Shown in pieces: positions 50,162-61,996 of a stretch of DNA of 64,000 nucleotides. The notes under the pieces are model-generated. The model was not told the DNA's origin. It saw nothing but the letters and a program-made list of their open reading frames with translations, and ran no database searches. The DNA is from Roseimaritima sediminicola. GTDB taxonomy: Bacteria > Planctomycetota > Planctomycetia > Pirellulales > Pirellulaceae. Location of the stretch: assembly GCF_009618275.1 (NCBI RefSeq), contig NZ_WIAD01000014.1, positions 44,860 to 108,859 on the forward strand. The letters are read 5' to 3'. Each line of letters opens with the position of its first letter. Positions within the stretch are counted from its first letter, which is position 1. The position numbers were made by a program, and so were the translations under genes.

Positions 50162-50965
50162 CCGCCGCTCAATCGCGAAGCGATGGCAGTTGATAGCCTC
50201 GGATGCCAATCCGAGGTAGGAGGCTCCAAAAACACATCGGGAGTCGCGGAGCGACGACAGGTCGCTCAAGCCACATGCCGTCGCTCCGCGACTTTCACTG
50301 GGGTGGGGTGTCGCCGACCTGGGATTCGCATCCCAGGCTATCGACGGTCGTTGCTTCGCAACTAGCGATCGTCTGCGATCGTCCATCAGTAGCTCGGCTG
50401 TCCTCAGCCGAGACGAGAGCGAGCCACGGCCGGGAACGGCCATCCCGTTCTCGACGGCGCGGATGCCGAGGCGCACCGCCGCTCAATCGCGAAGCGATGG
50501 CAGTTGATAGCCTCGGATGCCAATCCGAGGTAGGAGGCCCCAAAACACATCGGGAGTCGCGGAGCGACGACAGGTCGCTCAAGCCACATGCCGTCGCTCC
50601 GCGACTTTCACTGGGGTGGGGTGTCGCCGACCTGGGATTCGCATCCCAGGCTTTCGACGGTCGTTGCTTCGCAACTAGCGATCGTCCCACAGTAGCTCGG
50701 CTGTCCTCAGCCGAGACGAGAGCGAGCCACGGCCGGGAACGGCCCTCCCGTTCTCGACGGCGCGGATGCCGAGGCGCACCGCCGCTCAATCGCGAAGCGA
50801 TGGCAGTTGATAGCCTCGGATGCCAATCCGAGGTAGGAGGCCCCAAAAACACGTCGGGAGTCGCCGACCTGGGATTCGCATCCCAGGCTTTCGACGGTCG
50901 TTGCTTCGCAACTAGCGATCGTCTGCGATCGTCCCACAGTAGCTCGGCTGTCCTCAGCCGAGACA
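50162..50965. repeat. Large tandem repeat: two full units of about 310 bp and a shortened third
   Basis: Unit starts at 50162, 50476 and 50779 (periods 314 and 303). Each unit contains several small palindromes, including CGGATGCCAATCCG, CTGGGATTCGCATCCCAG and the CTCGGCTGTCCTCAGCCGAG hairpin. The third unit lacks about 65 bases in its middle. Near-identity between copies indicates a recent duplication. The area between the dgcN start and the DUF2272 gene otherwise holds no supported gene. Confidence 0.9.
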
Positions 50966-51106
50966 GGGGCGCGTCCCAACTCTGGCGTTTTCCAGCTACC
51001 TCCCCCACACAGGTCGCGAGCTTCCGTACGGCCCACCCCCGAAGTAAACTCAAAAACCGTCCTCGCCCCCCGTGGCCCGCCTCTCACCGCAGCCCAAAAA
51101 TCCCCT

Positions 51107-54140: not shown

Positions 54141-54339
54141 TGCCGCGCAGCGCCACCGTCTTTGTGCTTCTTCGCATCTTAACGCGGGATGGAACCAATC
54201 AACAGCGAATGCAGATGCAAGGAATTGCACCCGAGCCGCTCCCTCCTCCACCAGCCGCATCCACAACAGCCGCAGATCGCTAGCCCACGGTTCCCATCAG
54301 CGCAACCCAACGCGCTGCCCCACCACGGACCGAACCGGA

Positions 54340-55620
54340 CGCTAGCGAACCGGCGGCATAGCATTCCTTACGCGCGAGCAGGCCCAACGGGCCGAAGCTA
54401 TGTCAGCCCAGGGCAACGCCCTGGGTCACGAGCGGACGAAGCCGCGAGCCCCAACGGGGCGGCCCTACGGTTCTGCACGATCCAGCGCAGTCGAACCGGC
54501 TAGGGATCGAATTAGGGCCGCCCCGTTGGGGCTTGGCGCGGAGCGGGTGGGGAACAACCCAGGGCGTTGCCCTGGGCTGACATAGGGTTGCCCCTTTGGG
54601 GCGAGGTTGCGCGTGCGTCGCCCAGGAACATCCGCTCACGTGCTTGTCAATCTAGTCAACCGCCCGCTAGCCCACGGTTCCTGCTTCCGCCCCCTGAGCC
54701 GCCGGGCGCTAGCCCGCGGTTCCCACCCCGCAACCCAACGCGCTACCCCAACACACCACCGAACCGGACGCTAGCGAACCGGCGGCATAGCATTCCTTAC
54801 GCGCGAGCAGGCCCAACGGGCCGATGCTATATCAGCCCAGGGCAACGCCCTGGGTCACGAGCGGACGAGCCCGCGAGCCCCAACGGGGCGGCCCTACCAT
54901 TTTGCACGATCCAGCGCGGTCGAACCGGCTAGGGATCGAGCTAGGGCCGCCCCGTTGGGGCTTGGCGCGGAGCGGGTGGGGAACACCCCAGGGCGTTGCC
55001 CTGGGCTGACTTAGGGTTGCCCCTTTGGGGCGAGGTTGCGCGTGCGTCGCCCAGGAACATCCGCCCACGTGCTTGTCAATCTAGTCAACCGCCCGCTAGC
55101 CCACGGTTCCTGCCTCCGCCCCCTGAGCCGTTTGGGCGATAGCCCCGGTTCCTACCCACCACGCCCATCAGCCGCAACGCGCTACCCCACCACGGCACCG
55201 AACCAGACGCTGGCACACCGGCGGCATAGCAGTCCTAACGCGCGAGCAGGCCCAACGGGCCGATGCTATGTCAGCCCAGGGCAACGCCCTGGGTCACGAG
55301 CGGACGAAGCCGCGAGCCCCAACGGGGCGGCCCTACCATTTTGCACGATCCAGCGCGGTCGAACCGGCTAGGGATCGAGCTAGGGCCGCCCCGTTGGGGC
55401 TTGGCGCGGAGCGGGTGGGGAATACCCCAGGGCGTTGCCCTGGGCTGACATAGGGTTGCCCCTTTGGGGCGAGGTTGCGCGTGCGTCGCCCAGGAACATC
55501 CGCCCACGTGCTTGTCAATCTAGTCAACCGCCCGCTAGCCCACGGTTCCTACCTCCGCCCCCTGAGCCGTTTCGGCGATAGCCCCGGTTCCTACCCACCA
55601 CGCCCATCAGCCGCAACGCG
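54340..55620. repeat. Nested-palindrome repeat block, three copies of about 430 bp
   Basis: The motif GCCCAACGGG starts at 54382, 54811 and 55250 (periods 429 and 439). In each unit a 28-bp outer inverted repeat (54399-54426 / 54557-54584 in copy 1) encloses an inner one of about 21 bp built on GCCCCAACGGGGCGGCCC. In copy 1 a short CGGTTC/GAACCG pair lies inside that, so a hairpin of about 190 nt could form. Between units lie copies of the 34-bp repeat seen at 47.7 kb. No genes are supported here despite several GC-rich frames. Confidence 0.9.
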
Positions 55621-55945: not shown

Positions 55946-58900
55946 CTACGTCTCGACCGAATCGATCACTCTAATGAACTCGCCCACAACCCGGACGTCC
56001 TCCGCCTCTTCACTTGAAATCTCGATCGGTTGGTAGCTTTTGTTCAGCGGCTCGAGCCGAATCGACTCATGCACCCAACCGTCATTAGTCGCTTGTTTAA
56101 CAGAATGGTAGCGTTTGACGGTATAGCGTCCGCCGTCCTCAGGATCTGCATGCGTATTGACCTGCACCAATAGTAACCTCCCTTCTCGGGAGCCAGCCGG
56201 ACACGGCCGAAACAAGCACCACGAACGATCAGGAATAGTTGGCTCCATTGAATGACCATAAACACGAGCCGCGAACAGCCCCTCGGAAAGTGGATAATTC
56301 GGGACAGCAATCCATCCGATCGCTTCTGGAACACCGGCGGGCCCCCACTCCCCAGCAGCGGCCGACAAGTCGTACACGGGGGCGTGCGTCTTGAACTTGG
56401 ATTCATCTGGCACCTCGGACAAAATGTCGCAGAGATCCGTCTCCACTGAGCTCGTCTTCTCAGCCGAAACTGCACCTTCGACTTGAAGCGGCGTCACGTA
56501 CCATTCCCCGCCTCGGCATTCGAAGTTTACTCGAAAGTCCGTACCAGGTAGTCCGGCATTTGGGCCAAACCATTGTTGCAGCAACTGTCCCAGTTGATTC
56601 CTCTTATCGCCTATTGGCCTCGCGACATTACATGCGATCTTCACCATCTTGAACTCCCACATCTGGCCGTCCGGCAAACGCATGCGTGTCGGTCCCACTG
56701 GTCGTTCGGGCGATTTCGACTCTTCGGGAAGAAACAGGATCGGACGACCGTTGGAGTGAGATACCTTTGCTTCAAAACGGACTTCTTGATGATCGGTCGG
56801 CACTAGCCGACGGCTTCGGGCATAGGCCGCTAGCCGCCAATCCACAAGTTCTTCGGTGAGCGCTTCGACGGTCGATTTTAAGTGCTCAGGACAAGCCACC
56901 GCCCACTGGAACATGTTCTCCTTTCTCACAAACCACTTGGTTCCGTTCTGTTTCGCAAGCCAACGATCGATCGGCCAACGGATCCACCATTTGGCCCACT
57001 CCTGGTCCGTTGCGTTCGCATGGTCGACCCCATGGTTCGCACCGTGTAAATCGCGTCGCAGCACTTCGTGGCCTTGCAAGAAACCTCGACACTGTTTGGA
57101 GAACTCGAATAAGCCAACCGCTCGAAACATCTGCGAGGTGTCCAGTAGGGCTCTCAAAACGATCATCTTGTATGACTTTTTTAGATTCGTTGTCTCCAAC
57201 GTCTGGAACCAGTCGCCAAACGACGCAACCGCTTTCTCTTCCAGTTCCGACAGATCGCCCTCGTCCCGGATAAAATGAAACCAACTTTGCGCACCGGCAC
57301 TAATCGTTCGCGGTAGAAAGCCTCTACTGAACACTTCTGTTGCCGTCGGTCTGCGTCCCAGCTCATCGCGCAGGGCACGATAGCCTTCGATTGAGGCCAG
57401 TCGTCCCCGCGGAAGGAACGCTTTCAGCATGTCCTTCGCTTCAAGTTCCACATCCAGTAGACAGCCTTCGGGCAGCTCTACCTGCCGGCCAGCAAGCCAA
57501 TCCTTTAGAACCTTCCATTTATCGCTACCCGATTCCAAGCACAGCAAATGCAAAATGCGTTGTGCGAAGATGCGGTGATTGCCGACAAAGTCTAGAACCA
57601 ACAGGCGGGTCTTACCTTCACTGGATCGCAAGCCTCGACCGAGCTGTTGCAAGAAGATAATCTTCGATTCTGTCGGGCGGAGCATTACCACGCGATCGAC
57701 CGCCGGAATGTCCAGTCCTTCGTTGAACATATCGACAACGCATAACGCCTGAAGCTCGCCATCGCGAAGCCGCTGAAGTGACTCGCTATAGCTGTCGCTC
57801 CCCTCGCCCGAAAAGACTGCGGCCGACGATACGCCTTTGGAACGCAGCCAATCACGAGCAAACAATGCGTGGCGACGCGAGCAGCAGAACACGAGTGTTC
57901 GATCCGCGGGATGGCTCTGCATCGCCTCCCAGAGCCGAACCATACGTTCACTCTTGATGACACGCTGTTCGAGTTGCGCGACGTCAAAACGGCCGTTCCG
58001 CCAAGGCACTTGCTTGAAGTCAACAGTGTCTTTGAGTCCTACATAGTGGAACGGCACCAACGCGTCTTCAGAAATTCCATCACCGATCGTCGCGTGATAG
58101 GCCAGATTGTCATCGAAAATCGTCGCCACATCGACACCGTCGGTCCGTTCCGGCGTGGCTGTCAGTCCGAGCGCGAAACTGCAATGAAGATTTGCTAGCA
58201 CACGCCGGTAGCTTGGTGCATGGGCATGGTGCACTTCGTCCATGATTACGTAATCGAAACGTTCGGCAGCGAGTCGCTGCAAACCCTTTGAGCGAGACAG
58301 CTTCTGTACCGACGCGACCACCAGGTCGCCCCTAAGTTCGCTTCGCTTCCCAACATACCAGGCCGTCGCTCCCGCACCGAACCGATACTCTAGCAAGCGG
58401 GAAAGCACTGATTCTGCCTGAGCAAGTATATGGGCGCGGTGGGCAACGATTAGTACGCGTGGACGACGGTTGATACTTTCGCCAAACTGGCACGCATCGA
58501 ATGCAGCCAGCCAAGTCTTTCCCATACCAGTAGCGACGGCGACGAGTGCTCGTCGATAACCATTAACGCGAACGTCTGCCAACGCCGCCAACGCTTCAAC
58601 CTGCCACGGACGCGGATCAGGGACCTCCTGAGATTCTTGCGTTTCCGGAACAAAGTTTTCTCTCCGGAACTTCCTCGCACGCTGTTCGTAGTCGACAACG
58701 GCTTTTGACGTCAGAGCTGACGCGTTCTCCCAAAGGATGTCAAACTCTTCCGCAAATTTCGCGTGTGCCGGCTCGTGCTCCTCGGTGGTCGATAACAGGT
58801 TCCACTCCACGCCCGTTTCGAGTGCTGGCCGCGACAAATTGCTGCTACCGACGGAGATCAATTCACTGCCGCTCTCGACGATCCGCCACGCCTTCGGGTG

Positions 58901-59647
58901 AAATGACATCGGCTTCGACGGCAATTTCGCGGACTCGATTAGCCTCGCACGCAAGCGTAAGGACCGAAACTCTTCCTTCGCCAACTCGCACCACCCAAGC
59001 AGGCTGCGAAGTGCTTTTGGGTCAGAAACATACAGGTAGTCGCTGACCAATATGCGAATCTCTGCCTTATTCCCCAAAGCTTCGAACAGTCGTTCCTCAA
59101 TGACTTCCAAGCCAGACGACTGAACAAACGAAGCGAGTATGTCCACCGTTTTCGCACCAGCAATCCGCCAAGCAAGTTGCTCCCATAGCGGAGCACGCGG
59201 ATAGCCGACACTTAGAACGGAACCACGGCGTATCCTCGCTTCTGCAGACGCACTTGTCGCAGAAGTCAAGTAGTTTCCTTTGCCTGGGATGACGTGACGA
59301 ACGCCACCACGAGGATCAGGCATGTCCCCTACATAACGCGGTATCACGTGAATGTGGACATGTTCTACAGTTTGGCCAGCTGCACCCCCAGCGTTGAAGC
59401 CGACGTTGTAGCCATCCGGTTTCGGGCAAAGCATTGCGTCCAGTTTTCGCTTGACCTCGTTGACTAGCGACATCAGCGCAGCTTGTTCCTCCGCCGTGGC
59501 TTCAAACCACGTAGGGACAAGCCGCCGCGTAACGACAAGAGCATGTCCTGGAGTCACAGGGAATCCATCGTGAATGGCAAACGCCAACTCATTCGACGCG
59601 ATCCAGTCATCAGGCGGCACATCAAGAAACGGCGAAGCCATCGTCAT
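55946..59647 (-). CDS. HIT - PLD - SF2 helicase - S24 peptidase fusion protein
   Basis: A 1233-residue multidomain protein. (1) Residues 1-125: HIT hydrolase domain with H96-V-H98-I-H100. (2) About 150-310: phospholipase D-like nuclease domain with H250-P-K252 and GSSNLS (267-272). (3) About 340-700: superfamily 2 helicase with TGMGKT (373-378), DEVH (470-473), TATPERTDG (496-504) and QQLGRGLR (667-674). (4) A helical region (about 700-1080) of no recognised family. (5) About 1100-1230: LexA-like S24 peptidase domain with Ser in GHSMEP (S1133) and Lys in YTVKRY (K1178), the usual dyad. The start may be the internal ATG at 59641, which has GCAGGA before it. An SOS-like or defence role is inferred. 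Confidence 0.9.
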   Translation of the reverse strand: MTMASPFLDVPPDDWIASNELAFAIHDGFPVTPGHALVVTRRLVPTWFEATAEEQAALMSLVNEVKRKLDAMLCPKPDGYNVGFNAGGAAGQTVEHVHIHVIPRYVGDMPDPRGGVRHVIPGKGNYLTSATSASAEARIRRGSVLSVGYPRAPLWEQLAWRIAGAKTVDILASFVQSSGLEVIEERLFEALGNKAEIRILVSDYLYVSDPKALRSLLGWCELAKEEFRSLRLRARLIESAKLPSKPMSFHPKAWRIVESGSELISVGSSNLSRPALETGVEWNLLSTTEEHEPAHAKFAEEFDILWENASALTSKAVVDYEQRARKFRRENFVPETQESQEVPDPRPWQVEALAALADVRVNGYRRALVAVATGMGKTWLAAFDACQFGESINRRPRVLIVAHRAHILAQAESVLSRLLEYRFGAGATAWYVGKRSELRGDLVVASVQKLSRSKGLQRLAAERFDYVIMDEVHHAHAPSYRRVLANLHCSFALGLTATPERTDGVDVATIFDDNLAYHATIGDGISEDALVPFHYVGLKDTVDFKQVPWRNGRFDVAQLEQRVIKSERMVRLWEAMQSHPADRTLVFCCSRRHALFARDWLRSKGVSSAAVFSGEGSDSYSESLQRLRDGELQALCVVDMFNEGLDIPAVDRVVMLRPTESKIIFLQQLGRGLRSSEGKTRLLVLDFVGNHRIFAQRILHLLCLESGSDKWKVLKDWLAGRQVELPEGCLLDVELEAKDMLKAFLPRGRLASIEGYRALRDELGRRPTATEVFSRGFLPRTISAGAQSWFHFIRDEGDLSELEEKAVASFGDWFQTLETTNLKKSYKMIVLRALLDTSQMFRAVGLFEFSKQCRGFLQGHEVLRRDLHGANHGVDHANATDQEWAKWWIRWPIDRWLAKQNGTKWFVRKENMFQWAVACPEHLKSTVEALTEELVDWRLAAYARSRRLVPTDHQEVRFEAKVSHSNGRPILFLPEESKSPERPVGPTRMRLPDGQMWEFKMVKIACNVARPIGDKRNQLGQLLQQWFGPNAGLPGTDFRVNFECRGGEWYVTPLQVEGAVSAEKTSSVETDLCDILSEVPDESKFKTHAPVYDLSAAAGEWGPAGVPEAIGWIAVPNYPLSEGLFAARVYGHSMEPTIPDRSWCLFRPCPAGSREGRLLLVQVNTHADPEDGGRYTVKRYHSVKQATNDGWVHESIRLEPLNKSYQPIEISSEEAEDVRVVGEFIRVIDSVET

Positions 59648-59771: not shown

Positions 59772-60434
59772 TTAGTCGATCCCGACGAGTTCGCGACATT
59801 TGGGGTAGTTCACGCATGCCCAGAATTGTCTGCCAGCGTGTTTGCCTCTTGTCGCTGTCCGTAGAACCATTGACGTGTCACATTTTGAACATAGCGGCGA
59901 GGCCGGTTCCCGCACCGTTGTGTCGCTGCCTGACACCACAGCTGGAGACTCACCGTGAATGCAGGCTGCAATTCGGTCTCGCAGGTCGGTAGCTGAGTAG
60001 TTGCGGGATGCAGCAACATGCAAGATCGGTAGACGTGCCGCAGCAAACGCTTTGTCCACGAAGGCGTCGCGGTCCTGTCGGTCCTGTCGATTGTGGCTAG
60101 AGTCATCTAGCTCGATGGCTAGGACGGGCTGCATCGTAGCAGGGTCACAGAGCAAGAAGTCGACGTGTTTGCTGCTGATTTTGTTCTCGTAGCGGCGGCT
60201 GCCTTCTGCTCTTGGGACGTAGAGAACATCCCATAAACGCACCTTGTTGTTTATCGAATACTGCGGAGCGGCCTGTTCGAGTACGCGGTAGAAAGCTAAT
60301 TCGGCTGGCGAGAGAAAACTCGTCCTCAGCCGATATGGAAGCTCTTCACTGGCATCTGCCGTTCCATCGCCTGAATTGAAGCCGAAGACCCGAAGAAAGA
60401 AACCCAGACAGCCACTTCGCTGCGATTCAGCCAT
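59772..60434 (-). CDS. DUF2726 nuclease-like protein with C-terminal topoisomerase-type zinc ribbon
   Basis: A 220-residue protein. The N-terminal part (LRTSFLSPAELAFYRVLEQAAPQYSINNKVRLWDVL) and the core KHVDFLLCD with AIELDDSSH follow the DUF2726 pattern, a PD-(D/E)xK-like fold with D92, E108 and D110 as likely metal ligands. The C terminus is a topoisomerase-type zinc ribbon: C182, C185, C207 and C213 (LCSKC, FWACVNYPKC). It lies 124 bases upstream of the helicase fusion on the same strand, so the two are likely co-transcribed. It may be a DNA-binding endonuclease subunit of the module. Its composition is as AT-rich as its neighbour. Confidence 0.85.
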   Translation of the reverse strand: MAESQRSGCLGFFLRVFGFNSGDGTADASEELPYRLRTSFLSPAELAFYRVLEQAAPQYSINNKVRLWDVLYVPRAEGSRRYENKISSKHVDFLLCDPATMQPVLAIELDDSSHNRQDRQDRDAFVDKAFAAARLPILHVAASRNYSATDLRDRIAACIHGESPAVVSGSDTTVREPASPLCSKCDTSMVLRTATRGKHAGRQFWACVNYPKCRELVGID

Positions 60435-60562: not shown

Positions 60563-61996
60563 CTACCCAACCAGCTCGGCGATTTCCTCTAGGGAGATGG
60601 TGCGGTTGGCGGGTGAGGCGTGTAGGGATCGGCTCCGGATGGTTTGCGGGTTGGCGTCCGATGCCGACTTGGGAGGGACGGGGGTGCTTGGGCTTGCGAC
60701 CGTTTTCGCAAGGCTCGCGGCGATGCTTGGAGCGGCGTTGGGGGGATGGCCGAAGAGGTACCAGTGGATGAGCCCGCCGATGGCGTAGATGTCTGTCTGG
60801 GGACTGATGCTGCCCAGCGCGGGGTCGATCTGCTCGGGGGCCGCAAAGCCGAGGGTTCCGCCGAGGACCGGCGGACGCGACCCCGAGAACGCTTGCGAGA
60901 ACCCGAAATCGGTAATCACGATCCGATCGTGCTCGTCGACCAGAAGGTTCGCGGGCGTGAGGTCCCCGTGCACCAGCCCGGCTCGGTGGACCGCCTGCAG
61001 GGCCTCGCAGATCTGGCGCACCCATCCAGCGAACCGTTGCCGGCCGGGACGTTCGATCGCGTGCATCGGCCCGCCGTCGATCCACTCGCTGAGCACATAT
61101 GGGCCGCCGTGCGGCGACTCGCCGTAGCCCAGGTAGCGAATCACGCCGGGATGTCGAATGCGGGAAGCGGCATCGATCTCGCGGAGGAAGGACGCGTGGG
61201 CGGACGCGTGCTGCCAAAACGTCTTCCGCAGGAACTTGACCGCCACCGTTCGGGCGTCAGCCTGCAGACGGGCTCGATAAACTTTCCCAAAACCGCCGCT
61301 GCCAATCAGTTTCCCCAGCACGAACCGGCTGTAATCCACTCGCGGCAAACTCGGCCTAGCGGGTGCCGCGTCGCGGACGACTTCATTTGTATTCTCGCTC
61401 GGAGCCAACAACTCGCGAATCCGCGACAGCCGGCGACGCACCGTTCGCTCGTCGATCCCCAGCGACGCGGCGATTTCTCGCTGGGCCTGCCCGGCGAGCA
61501 AGCCCTGTACGACGGCGAATTGATCCGGAGCGAGCTCCTGCTTCAACCGATCTTCGAGCTCTTCGGCGTCGCCGTCCGCAATCGCAGAAGGCTGGGAATC
61601 AGCCGTCAGCTGGCCCAGTGAGACTCGGTCGCGATCGCCCCCGCGTTTGGCTGCCGCGTGCCGTTCGATCGAACGAGCCAGCTTCCGACGAGCAAAGGTT
61701 GCCAGCAGCCGCCACAGCGAAACGCTCTGACTGGCGCGGATGCGGCTGTGCCGGGCAGCATCGAAAAAGCTTCCTAAGGCTGACTGGACGACGTCGCCCG
61801 GATCGATCTCCGCCCGGAACCGCCGGTTGAGACGACTGGCCACCAGGGCCACGAGCCGTATGGCATAGCGGTCGTAGAGAATCGCGGCAGCTCCTTCGTC
61901 TCCGTCCTTCCAACGCCGCAGTAGCCAATCGTCTGGCTGATCCGCCAGCGACTCCGCTTTTTGCAATTCTTTTTCGCGATGGGTGTCCGGTTCCAA
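60563..61996 (-). CDS. ECF-type sigma factor fused to a Ser/Thr protein kinase
   Basis: A 477-residue fusion. Residues about 22-195 are an ECF-like sigma factor: region 2 (DEGAAAILYDRYAIRLVALVASRLNRRF, IDPGDVVQSALGSFF) and region 4 (FAVVQGLLAGQAQREIAASLGIDERTVRRRLSRIREL). From about 221 follows a complete kinase domain: GSGGFGKV loop (232-239), K254, catalytic H343-G-D345, DFG (363-365), APE (386-388) and D402. The start is TTG at 61996, supported by GAGGAA seven bases upstream; no other in-frame start precedes the kinase part. The kinase probably regulates the sigma part in the same polypeptide. The C-terminal about 60 residues are Ser/Pro-rich. Confidence 0.9.
   Translation of the reverse strand: MEPDTHREKELQKAESLADQPDDWLLRRWKDGDEGAAAILYDRYAIRLVALVASRLNRRFRAEIDPGDVVQSALGSFFDAARHSRIRASQSVSLWRLLATFARRKLARSIERHAAAKRGGDRDRVSLGQLTADSQPSAIADGDAEELEDRLKQELAPDQFAVVQGLLAGQAQREIAASLGIDERTVRRRLSRIRELLAPSENTNEVVRDAAPARPSLPRVDYSRFVLGKLIGSGGFGKVYRARLQADARTVAVKFLRKTFWQHASAHASFLREIDAASRIRHPGVIRYLGYGESPHGGPYVLSEWIDGGPMHAIERPGRQRFAGWVRQICEALQAVHRAGLVHGDLTPANLLVDEHDRIVITDFGFSQAFSGSRPPVLGGTLGFAAPEQIDPALGSISPQTDIYAIGGLIHWYLFGHPPNAAPSIAASLAKTVASPSTPVPPKSASDANPQTIRSRSLHASPANRTISLEEIAELVG

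What the first reader, a model, noticed from the sequence alone, without database searches (positions are those of the whole stretch)
55946..59647. A single protein joins HIT, PLD-nuclease, SF2 helicase and LexA-like peptidase domains
I can see all signature residues of the four domains in one 1233-residue chain: HIT histidines 96/98/100, PLD H250-x-K252, helicase TGMGKT/DEVH/QQLGRGLR, and an S24 Ser1133-Lys1178 dyad. PLD-helicase proteins are known in anti-phage islands, and S24 domains act in damage-induced self-cleavage. Joining both, plus a nucleotide-hydrolase domain, would let DNA damage or phage attack release or silence the nuclease-helicase by autoproteolysis. That mechanism is inference.
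Basis: partly seen in the sequence, partly recalled or inferred. Interest (0 to 1): 0.85.

Follow-up and report, generated by a model that had tools for sequence, protein, structure and literature searches.

The report
Restriction motor with LexA self-cleavage switch
This gene encodes a large protein, related to the restriction enzyme SauUSI and so likely a DNA-cutting defence enzyme, that carries a LexA-like domain predicted to cut the protein in two when DNA is damaged, which would likely switch the enzyme off; the same fusion occurs in several bacterial phyla.

Summary
Confirmed: one unbroken 1233-aa minus-strand ORF (55946-59647) joins HIT, PLD-type nuclease, SF2 ATPase and LexA/UmuD-type S24 domains. 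(1) PLD-ATPase-coupler is the chassis of SauUSI, an ATP-driven Type IV restriction enzyme (PDB 7clg, E 9e-95). (2) A predicted B3-like DNA-binding domain (954-1058) precedes S24. (3) S24 looks fully able to cleave itself: Ser1133, Lys1178 and an Ala1098-Gly1099 pair 35 residues before the Ser; of 363 aligned rows 356 keep both catalytic residues, and all 356 have Ala or Cys at P1 (Gly at P1' in 348). HIT-bearing relatives form one clade among the SauUSI-like enzymes compared; in some, S24 sits between motor and a C-terminal recognition module, and one lineage lacks it. The gene is patchy (18 of 199 family genomes intact), sometimes decayed, and in some loci beside defence genes or integrases. 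Best reading: a restriction-type enzyme with a built-in, RecA-triggered off-switch (hard-wired restriction alleviation). Direction, trigger and HIT role are inferred. Eight searches of an open-access library found no description of this fusion.

The parts
55946..59647 (-). Whole gene: HIT-PLD-SF2-coupler-B3-S24 protein, 1233 aa
   Evidence: Unbroken ORF; Pfam/PADLOC/PDB matches; homologues of the same architecture
59333..59614 (-). HIT domain, residues 12-105, HxHxH 96/98/100
   Evidence: Pfam E 2e-21; nearest solved relatives are HIT-family Ap4A phosphorylase and FHIT-type proteins
58658..59200 (-). PLD-type (HKD) nuclease domain, about residues 150-330, H250-x-K252 ... GSSN 267-270
   Evidence: PLDc_2 below cut-off; SauUSI alignment from residue 160; residues invariant in 121 of 121
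57548..58630 (-). SF2 ATPase/translocase, about residues 340-700
   Evidence: ResIII and Helicase_C; SauUSI 7clg E 3.9e-69 and 9.3e-95 with a profile
56813..57547 (-). Helical coupler, about residues 701-945
   Evidence: AF2 model mostly helical; profile match to SauUSI-like enzymes, 93% probability over 88 columns; 7clg alignment runs to residue 798
56474..56788 (-). Predicted B3-like DNA-binding domain, residues 954-1058
55958..56392 (-). LexA/UmuD-type S24 autoprotease domain, residues 1086-1230
56351..56356 (-). Predicted scissile bond Ala1098-Gly1099
   Evidence: 35 residues before Ser1133; P1 Ala/Cys in 356 of 356 and P1' Gly in 348 of 356 rows that keep both catalytic residues
56249..56251 (-). 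Catalytic Ser1133
   Evidence: Aligned sequences
56114..56116 (-). Catalytic Lys1178
   Evidence: Aligned sequences

Best explanation
This protein is likely a SauUSI-like, ATP-driven restriction endonuclease with a built-in LexA-type domain predicted to cleave itself, which would switch the enzyme off when the cell's DNA is damaged. Shown by sequence: the SauUSI-type chassis (PLD nuclease, SF2 ATPase, coupler), an S24 domain with intact Ser-Lys dyad and a conserved Ala-Gly (or Cys-Gly) pair at the place where LexA-type proteins cut. Predicted by modelling: the LexA-type fold and a B3-like DNA reader just before it. In relatives that still carry a recognition module after S24, the cut would separate the motor-nuclease from that module, so the simplest outcome is loss of targeting: restriction alleviation built into the enzyme itself, where the Type I enzyme EcoKI uses ClpXP. 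The HIT domain probably hydrolyses or senses a nucleotide; its role is unknown.
Against: No experiment. The direction of the switch is not shown: cleavage could activate. In this branch no recognition module follows S24, so the off-switch logic is carried over from relatives. One lineage (type D) has no S24 in the chain (Pfam on L115, L116, L117, L120), so the switch is dispensable. The cited analogy is imperfect: a section heading of PMC11109961 says that restriction alleviation of EcoKI is not an SOS-response function. No LexA-type box was recognised upstream of the gene. No neighbour family is shared by more than 5 of 52 loci and none of the families shown recurs in more than 3 of 94 scanned neighbour ORFs. 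No full-architecture copy in the phage, plasmid or viral searches made. Modification dependence cannot be assumed, since the SRA/DUF3427 reader is absent here.
Confidence: 0.42

Rival explanations
1. On-switch: the intact protein is held inactive and RecA-induced self-cleavage, set off by phage-caused DNA damage, frees the nuclease-motor as a second-line or suicidal effector.
For: Same anatomy. Phages generate ssDNA and RecA filaments (recalled). Placement after the DNA reader could let S24 mask it. UmuD is a precedent for cleavage that activates (recalled).
Against: A translocating nuclease set loose whenever host DNA is damaged would be costly (inference). In type C the cut would remove a recognition module rather than a mere mask. 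Type D has no S24; if S24 were an inhibitor only, its loss should be toxic (inference).
Confidence: 0.27
2. S24 as a non-cleaving docking or pairing module: the LexA-like domain binds RecA filaments or dimerises and recruits the enzyme to damaged or recombining DNA, cleavage being rare or irrelevant.
For: LexA bound to RecA filaments is among the best structural matches. S24 family domains dimerise (recalled).
Against: Conservation of Ser, Lys and the scissile pair in 348 of 356 rows next to a variable stretch is hard to explain without cleavage.
Confidence: 0.13
3. DNA-repair enzyme: an end-processing nuclease-helicase (HIT removing 5'-AMP adducts like aprataxin, PLD trimming ends) under SOS control, not a defence enzyme.
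For: HIT, PLD and RadD/XPB-like SF2 domains occur in repair proteins (recalled); RadD matches at E 2.7e-24 in NCBIfam, far below its cut-off. RecA and LexA present in the host. In L115 a type D gene overlaps a SprT-like gene.
Against: Closest relatives over the whole chassis are Type IV restriction enzymes. Distribution is patchy even within a genus and copies decay, unlike core repair genes.
Confidence: 0.1
4. Constitutive maturation: S24 cleaves itself soon after folding in every cell, so the mature enzyme always lacks the last 135 residues; no damage sensing.
For: Intramolecular S24 cleavage is possible without RecA at high pH (recalled).
Against: LexA-type domains normally hold the site out of the active centre until stimulated (recalled); tails follow S24 in types B and C and would be shed at once.
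Confidence: 0.08

Closest known systems
SauUSI (Staphylococcus aureus Type IV restriction endonuclease, PDB 7clg; PMC7913695, passages seen)
   Same: PLD nuclease - SF2 dsDNA translocase - helical coupler in one chain; sequence match over residues 160-798
   Different: SauUSI as described there has four domains, with no HIT or S24, and ends in an SRA domain that reads 5mC, which this protein lacks
LexA / UmuD / lambda CI (S24 self-cleaving proteins)
   Different: Those are repressors or a polymerase subunit; here the domain is the tail of a nuclease-motor and follows a B3-like, not helix-turn-helix, domain
R.NgoAVII and BfiI (PLD + B3 restriction endonucleases; PDB 4rd5, 4rct, 2c1l)
   Different: No HIT, no S24; the ATPase of NgoAVII is a separate protein (recalled); order and linkage differ
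EcoKI restriction alleviation by ClpXP (PMC11109961 abstract; PMC12707154 passages)
   Same: Proteolytic switching-off of an ATP-driven translocating restriction enzyme after DNA damage, replication or repair
   Different: There an outside protease does it and it is stated not to be an SOS function; here the protease would be a domain of the enzyme (inferred)

Membership tests
SauUSI-type Type IV restriction endonuclease | PLD nuclease + SF2 ATPase + coupler in one chain | tested here: met
   7clg E 9.3e-95, residues 160-798; PADLOC mREase_IV 1.4e-84; HxK and GSSN invariant in 121 of 121; PLDc_2 itself below Pfam cut-off
SauUSI-type Type IV restriction endonuclease | C-terminal SRA / DUF3427 target-recognition domain | tested here: not met
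   No DUF3427 match in the window protein at E<=1; tail is B3-like + S24. Present in type C relatives
SauUSI-type Type IV restriction endonuclease | Cuts 5mC/5hmC-modified DNA with ATP | not testable with these tools
   Needs biochemistry
LexA/UmuD-type S24 autoprotease domain | S24 fold with catalytic Ser-Lys dyad | tested here: met
LexA/UmuD-type S24 autoprotease domain | Scissile Ala-Gly or Cys-Gly pair about 35 residues before the Ser | tested here: met
   A1098-G1099, 35 residues; 348 of 356 have Gly at P1'
LexA/UmuD-type S24 autoprotease domain | RecA-stimulated self-cleavage | not testable with these tools
   RecA is in the genome; cleavage itself untested
LexA repressor | N-terminal helix-turn-helix DNA-binding domain and small size | tested here: not met
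   No HTH family among the 9 Pfam matches at E<=1; the genome's LexA is a separate 205-aa frame on C130
HIT superfamily hydrolase/transferase | HxHxH motif in HIT domain | tested here: met
   Pfam E 2e-21; H96/H98/H100 in 123 of 123 type A rows; one type C relative, P0206, has a degenerate motif
B3 DNA-binding domain | B3 fold | tested here: met
B3 DNA-binding domain | Sequence-specific DNA binding | not testable with these tools
   Needs binding assay
Anti-phage defence gene | Patchy distribution and defence-gene or mobile-element neighbourhood | tested here: inconclusive
   Patchy: 18 of 199 intact in family. Defence or integrase neighbours in some loci; no conserved neighbour; the share of loci with a defence gene was not counted
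Anti-phage defence gene | Protects cells from phage or plasmid | not testable with these tools
   Needs plating/transformation assay

The most novel reading that the evidence does not exclude
A whole lineage of restriction enzymes, spread over Planctomycetota, Myxococcota and Actinomycetota, has swallowed a LexA-type protease and so listens to the SOS signal directly: RecA filaments make the nuclease-motor cut itself away from its recognition end. Restriction alleviation becomes a property of the enzyme itself, needing no outside protease, and S24 self-cleavage is extended from repressors and polymerase subunits to a DNA-cutting effector.
Probability: 0.38. Interest if true: 0.85.

Novelty: new variant of a known kind. 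Interest (0 to 1): 0.72.

Why it matters
If true, it links two systems taught separately, restriction and the SOS response, in one polypeptide. How ATP-driven restriction enzymes are kept from killing their host after DNA damage is known for Type I enzymes (ClpXP) but not, to my knowledge, for SauUSI-like enzymes; here the answer would be written in the sequence and testable with one point mutation. It also gives a defined predicted cleavage site (Ala1098-Gly1099), a natural no-switch comparison (type D relatives without S24) and a large family to draw on, including cultured Rhodopirellula-group planctomycetes and myxobacteria.

Tried and rejected
Unique domain accident: rejected, the 120 listed hits share the architecture. 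Frameshift or assembly artefact: rejected for the window copy. Broken or partial copies do exist elsewhere (L051, L052 = G428, L053 = G422, L056, L057, L059 = G349, L060, L124, L126); they are described only. Some are split near residues 650-720 (L053, L057) or 800-846 (L052) with two overlapping frames; whether those are natural two-gene forms or decay or sequencing error was not decided.

Conserved operon partner: none. Clustering neighbours of 52 loci (G274 enters twice, as L040 and L064; several loci have short flanks) gave no recurrent family besides the gene's own relatives; two families occur in 5 loci each (one with the window's sigma-kinase gene, one of about 293 aa, not identified), a DUF6884 family in 4, the upstream DUF2726 gene in 3. 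A SauUSI-like gene sits directly beside the gene in L039, L046, L056 and L069 and 5.5 kb away in L111; G178 has one about 0.6 kb away, which my ORF picking in L066 missed.

S24 detection: my own S24 profile, built on type A, missed or barely found the S24 domains of types B and C that Pfam finds, so its silence is not evidence; the absence of S24 in type D rests on Pfam and on reading the tails. Separate S24 genes near type D were looked for only in the genes next to L115 and L116 (none).

LexA box: I scanned 300 bases upstream of lexA, recA, this gene and the DUF2726 gene for box types known to me (patterns recalled); none matched. A TGTACA-N9-TGTACA palindrome lies upstream of lexA and not upstream of this gene. 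The planctomycete box was not established, so this is weak.

Mobile elements: tblastn of the window protein in phages (E<=1e-20) found 256 records, none covering 80% of the query; tblastn of relative P0234 in plasmids (E<=1e-60) found 15, none covering 80%; the window protein itself was not run against plasmids. One pattern scan of viral contigs gave 2 helicase-level relatives.

dN/dS by domain: synonymous sites saturated, no result. Foldseek on the B3 model alone gave no E below 0.001; the B3 call rests on VIA-align. The extra tail of type B only weakly matches the DUF3427 tail of type C (47%) and not that of SauUSI-like enzymes (0.5%).

Literature: searches of the open-access PMC library found no description of a HIT-PLD-helicase-S24 protein; subscription papers are not covered, and most listed papers were seen as listings only.
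Full report
What is there. The finding's span holds one unbroken ORF on the minus strand (55946-59647, 1233 aa). Pfam finds HIT (12-105), ResIII (345-501), Helicase_C (572-675) and Peptidase_S24 (1090-1224) above their cut-offs and PLDc_2 (184-306) below its own. The named catalytic residues are present and invariant in 121 of 121 aligned sequences, one of which is the window's own database copy. The database search returned 3179 proteins at E<=0.001; the 120 shown are 60-74% identical over 78-100% of the query (own copy 100%) and share the architecture, some S24 matches being weak.

The chassis is a restriction enzyme. Residues 157-740 match PADLOC's Type IV mREase model (E 1.4e-84), and the best PDB relative is SauUSI, 7clg (E 3.9e-69; with a 12-sequence profile 9.3e-95 over 160-798). 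In passages I saw, SauUSI is a dimer of PLD nuclease, SF2 ATPase (221-617), helical coupler (618-805) and an SRA domain (806-953) that reads 5-methylcytosine; the ATPase translocates on DNA. None of the 25 NCBIfam matches shown (of 27) reaches its cut-off for this protein.

A self-cleaver by sequence. LexA-type proteins cut an Ala-Gly (LexA) or Cys-Gly (UmuD) bond some 35 residues before the catalytic Ser (recalled). Here Ala1098-Gly1099 lies 35 residues before Ser1133, and Lys1178 is 45 after it. I aligned 363 rows: the query, the 120 hits shown (P0001 is the window's own protein, so it is counted twice), 120 shown, 120 shown, and L047 and L048; these are the best-scoring hits of three queries, not a random sample. 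Ser and Lys are both present in 356; in these P1 is Ala in 243 and Cys in 113, P1' is Gly in 348, Ser in 7 and Asp in 1; the residue before P1 is nearly always Ala, while positions after P1' have entropies near 3 bits. The 7 rows lacking one or both catalytic residues are P0151 (Ala for Lys), P0201 (Lys region missing) and five with no S24 region in the alignment (P0196, P0207, P0208, P0209, P0221), most of them short or named partial; P0211 and P0214 have Asp or Ser at P1'.

How the family is built. Type A (the window's) ends with S24. Type B (mostly about 1400-1460 aa) has S24 followed by an extra tail; type C (about 1330 aa) has S24 followed by DUF3427. Type D is HIT-PLD-SF2-coupler without S24 (Pfam on L115, L116, L117, L120), with a DUF3427 end in L115 and none in L116, L117 and L120. 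The type C tail matches the DUF3427 tail of SauUSI-like enzymes at 99.9% (148 columns); type B's tail matches type C's only weakly (47%); the coupler is shared with SauUSI-like enzymes (93%, 88 columns) and B3 is not detected there (2.6%). In an 82-sequence tree of the PLD-SF2 part, rooted for display on L063, all HIT-bearing types form one clade (support 0.94, long stem) among SauUSI-like enzymes; A+B (0.999) and C+D (1.0) are its halves. The simplest history: HIT, B3 and S24 were added to a SauUSI-like enzyme, S24 landing between motor and recognition end; type D lost S24; type A lost the end. This is parsimony, not tested. L114 is a mosaic: a HIT domain of type A score, a type D body with DUF3427, and directly behind it a separate 117-aa S24 frame that lacks the scissile-site part, which speaks for module exchange.

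Where it occurs. Names given for type B and C hits include Myxococcota (Sorangium, Archangium, Polyangium, Anaeromyxobacter), Planctomycetota and Mycolicibacterium. In the window's phylum 37 of 294 genomes match at E<=1e-50: 3 with type A (67% identity or more), 7 with HIT-type relatives at 42-49%, 1 with a HIT fragment, and 26 matching only within about residues 94-840, as SauUSI-like enzymes do (three of these scanned with Pfam have DUF3427 and no HIT). In its family 49 of 199 match and 18 of 199 carry a single-frame, near-full-length type A gene; the 3 other same-genus genomes drawn have no match. Of 27 loci found in named genomes, 21 bear planctomycete names, 1 is an unnamed bacterium, 2 are fragments from bins named Victivallales and Spartobacteria, and 3 are SauUSI-like genes of Oceanobacter and Treponema. 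Several copies are broken or partial, and L125 holds a HIT-only frame.

Surroundings. The gene has no conserved partner (52 loci). In some loci it sits with defence or mobile genes: in Rhodopirellula europaea 6C (L045) about 360 bases from an HmaA gene (1633 bits) followed by a HEC-07 match (102 bits) and HmaB (1211 bits); L101 about 5 kb from a Type IIG enzyme; L039 beside a SauUSI-like gene with a PDC-M27C match beyond it; L065 and L106 beside phage-type integrases. I scanned 94 neighbour ORFs (90 from 14 loci and 4 from the window, one of these probably not a gene) out of 274 listed by the script: 179 PADLOC families match at least one ORF at 1e-10, but of the 25 shown none matches more than 3 of 94, and most of these are PD-T4-6 models that fit kinases generally (recalled); no Pfam family shown matches more than 3 of 94. 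I did not count how many loci hold a defence gene. In the window itself the upstream gene encodes DUF2726 plus a zinc ribbon resembling that of Top1, the latter below cut-off.

Mechanism. Shown by sequence: chassis, dyad, scissile pair, insertion point in relatives. Predicted: LexA-type and B3-like folds. Inferred: nuclease dimer and translocation as in SauUSI; RecA filament as trigger; off rather than on. The host has RecA and a true LexA, and two S24 matches in all, so the trigger is available. I prefer an off-switch because in type C the cut would part motor and nuclease from the recognition end, because type D lives without S24, and because proteolytic shut-off of a translocating restriction enzyme is known: EcoKI is removed by ClpXP when it acts on unmodified sites after replication or repair (PMC11109961, abstract and section list only; PMC12707154, passages only). 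Against the parallel, a section heading of PMC11109961 states that this alleviation is not an SOS-response function. An on-switch is the main rival and the data do not exclude it. The HIT domain resembles Ap4A phosphorylase, FHIT and HINT proteins; its motif is degenerate in P0206; its role is open.

Novelty. I found no paper describing the fusion (open-access library only). PMC7159879 (passages) mentions DUF3427 fused to a helicase and predicts binding to modified DNA; PMC12839542 (passages) names SauUSI in its reference list and has no 'LexA' or 'S24'. I therefore call it a new variant of a known kind: it would work like a SauUSI-type enzyme but fails one defining feature (SRA/DUF3427 reader) and adds a LexA-type domain.

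Noticed in passing
window 59775-60434, minus: Gene directly upstream encodes DUF2726 (E 2.8e-30) plus a Top1-like zinc ribbon (below cut-off); relatives near the same gene in only 3 of 52 loci, the window included.
   Followed up: partly
window 60566-61996, minus: One ORF fuses an ECF sigma factor (25-198) to a Ser/Thr protein kinase domain (227-425).
   Followed up: no
window 54307-55474: Three direct copies of a 300-nt element, 91-95% identical to the reference copy, start-to-start spacing 429 and 439 nt, just downstream of the gene.
   Followed up: partly
window 50162-50971: Second repeat cluster: overlapping families of 89-171 nt, many with 303-314 nt spacing, up to 99% identical.
   Followed up: partly
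L114:6106-10043: Mosaic locus: type A-like HIT domain on a type D body with DUF3427 end, followed at once by a separate 117-aa S24 frame that starts after the scissile site.
   Followed up: partly
L045:13765-14226, L109:11671-12132, L111:7540-7993: A DUF6884 gene follows the HIT-S24 gene directly, its start overlapping the stop codon, in L045 and L109; in L111 related frames lie at the same place but broken in two.
   Followed up: partly
L039:13955-17059, L046:1449-4559, L056:7537-10017, L069:4397-7504: A second, HIT-less SauUSI-like PLD-helicase gene lies beside the HIT-S24 gene; possible two-reader pairing.
   Followed up: partly
L125:7607-7981: A free-standing 125-aa HIT frame, 76% identical to the window protein's first 127 residues; remnant or independent gene.
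   Followed up: no
L115:10881-11405: A SprT-like (metalloprotease) gene overlaps the start of a type D gene; possible link to DNA-protein crosslink repair.
   Followed up: no
L134 (lexA of the same genome), about 77 bases upstream of its assumed start: TGTACA-N9-TGTACA palindrome, a candidate LexA operator in this genome.
   Followed up: no
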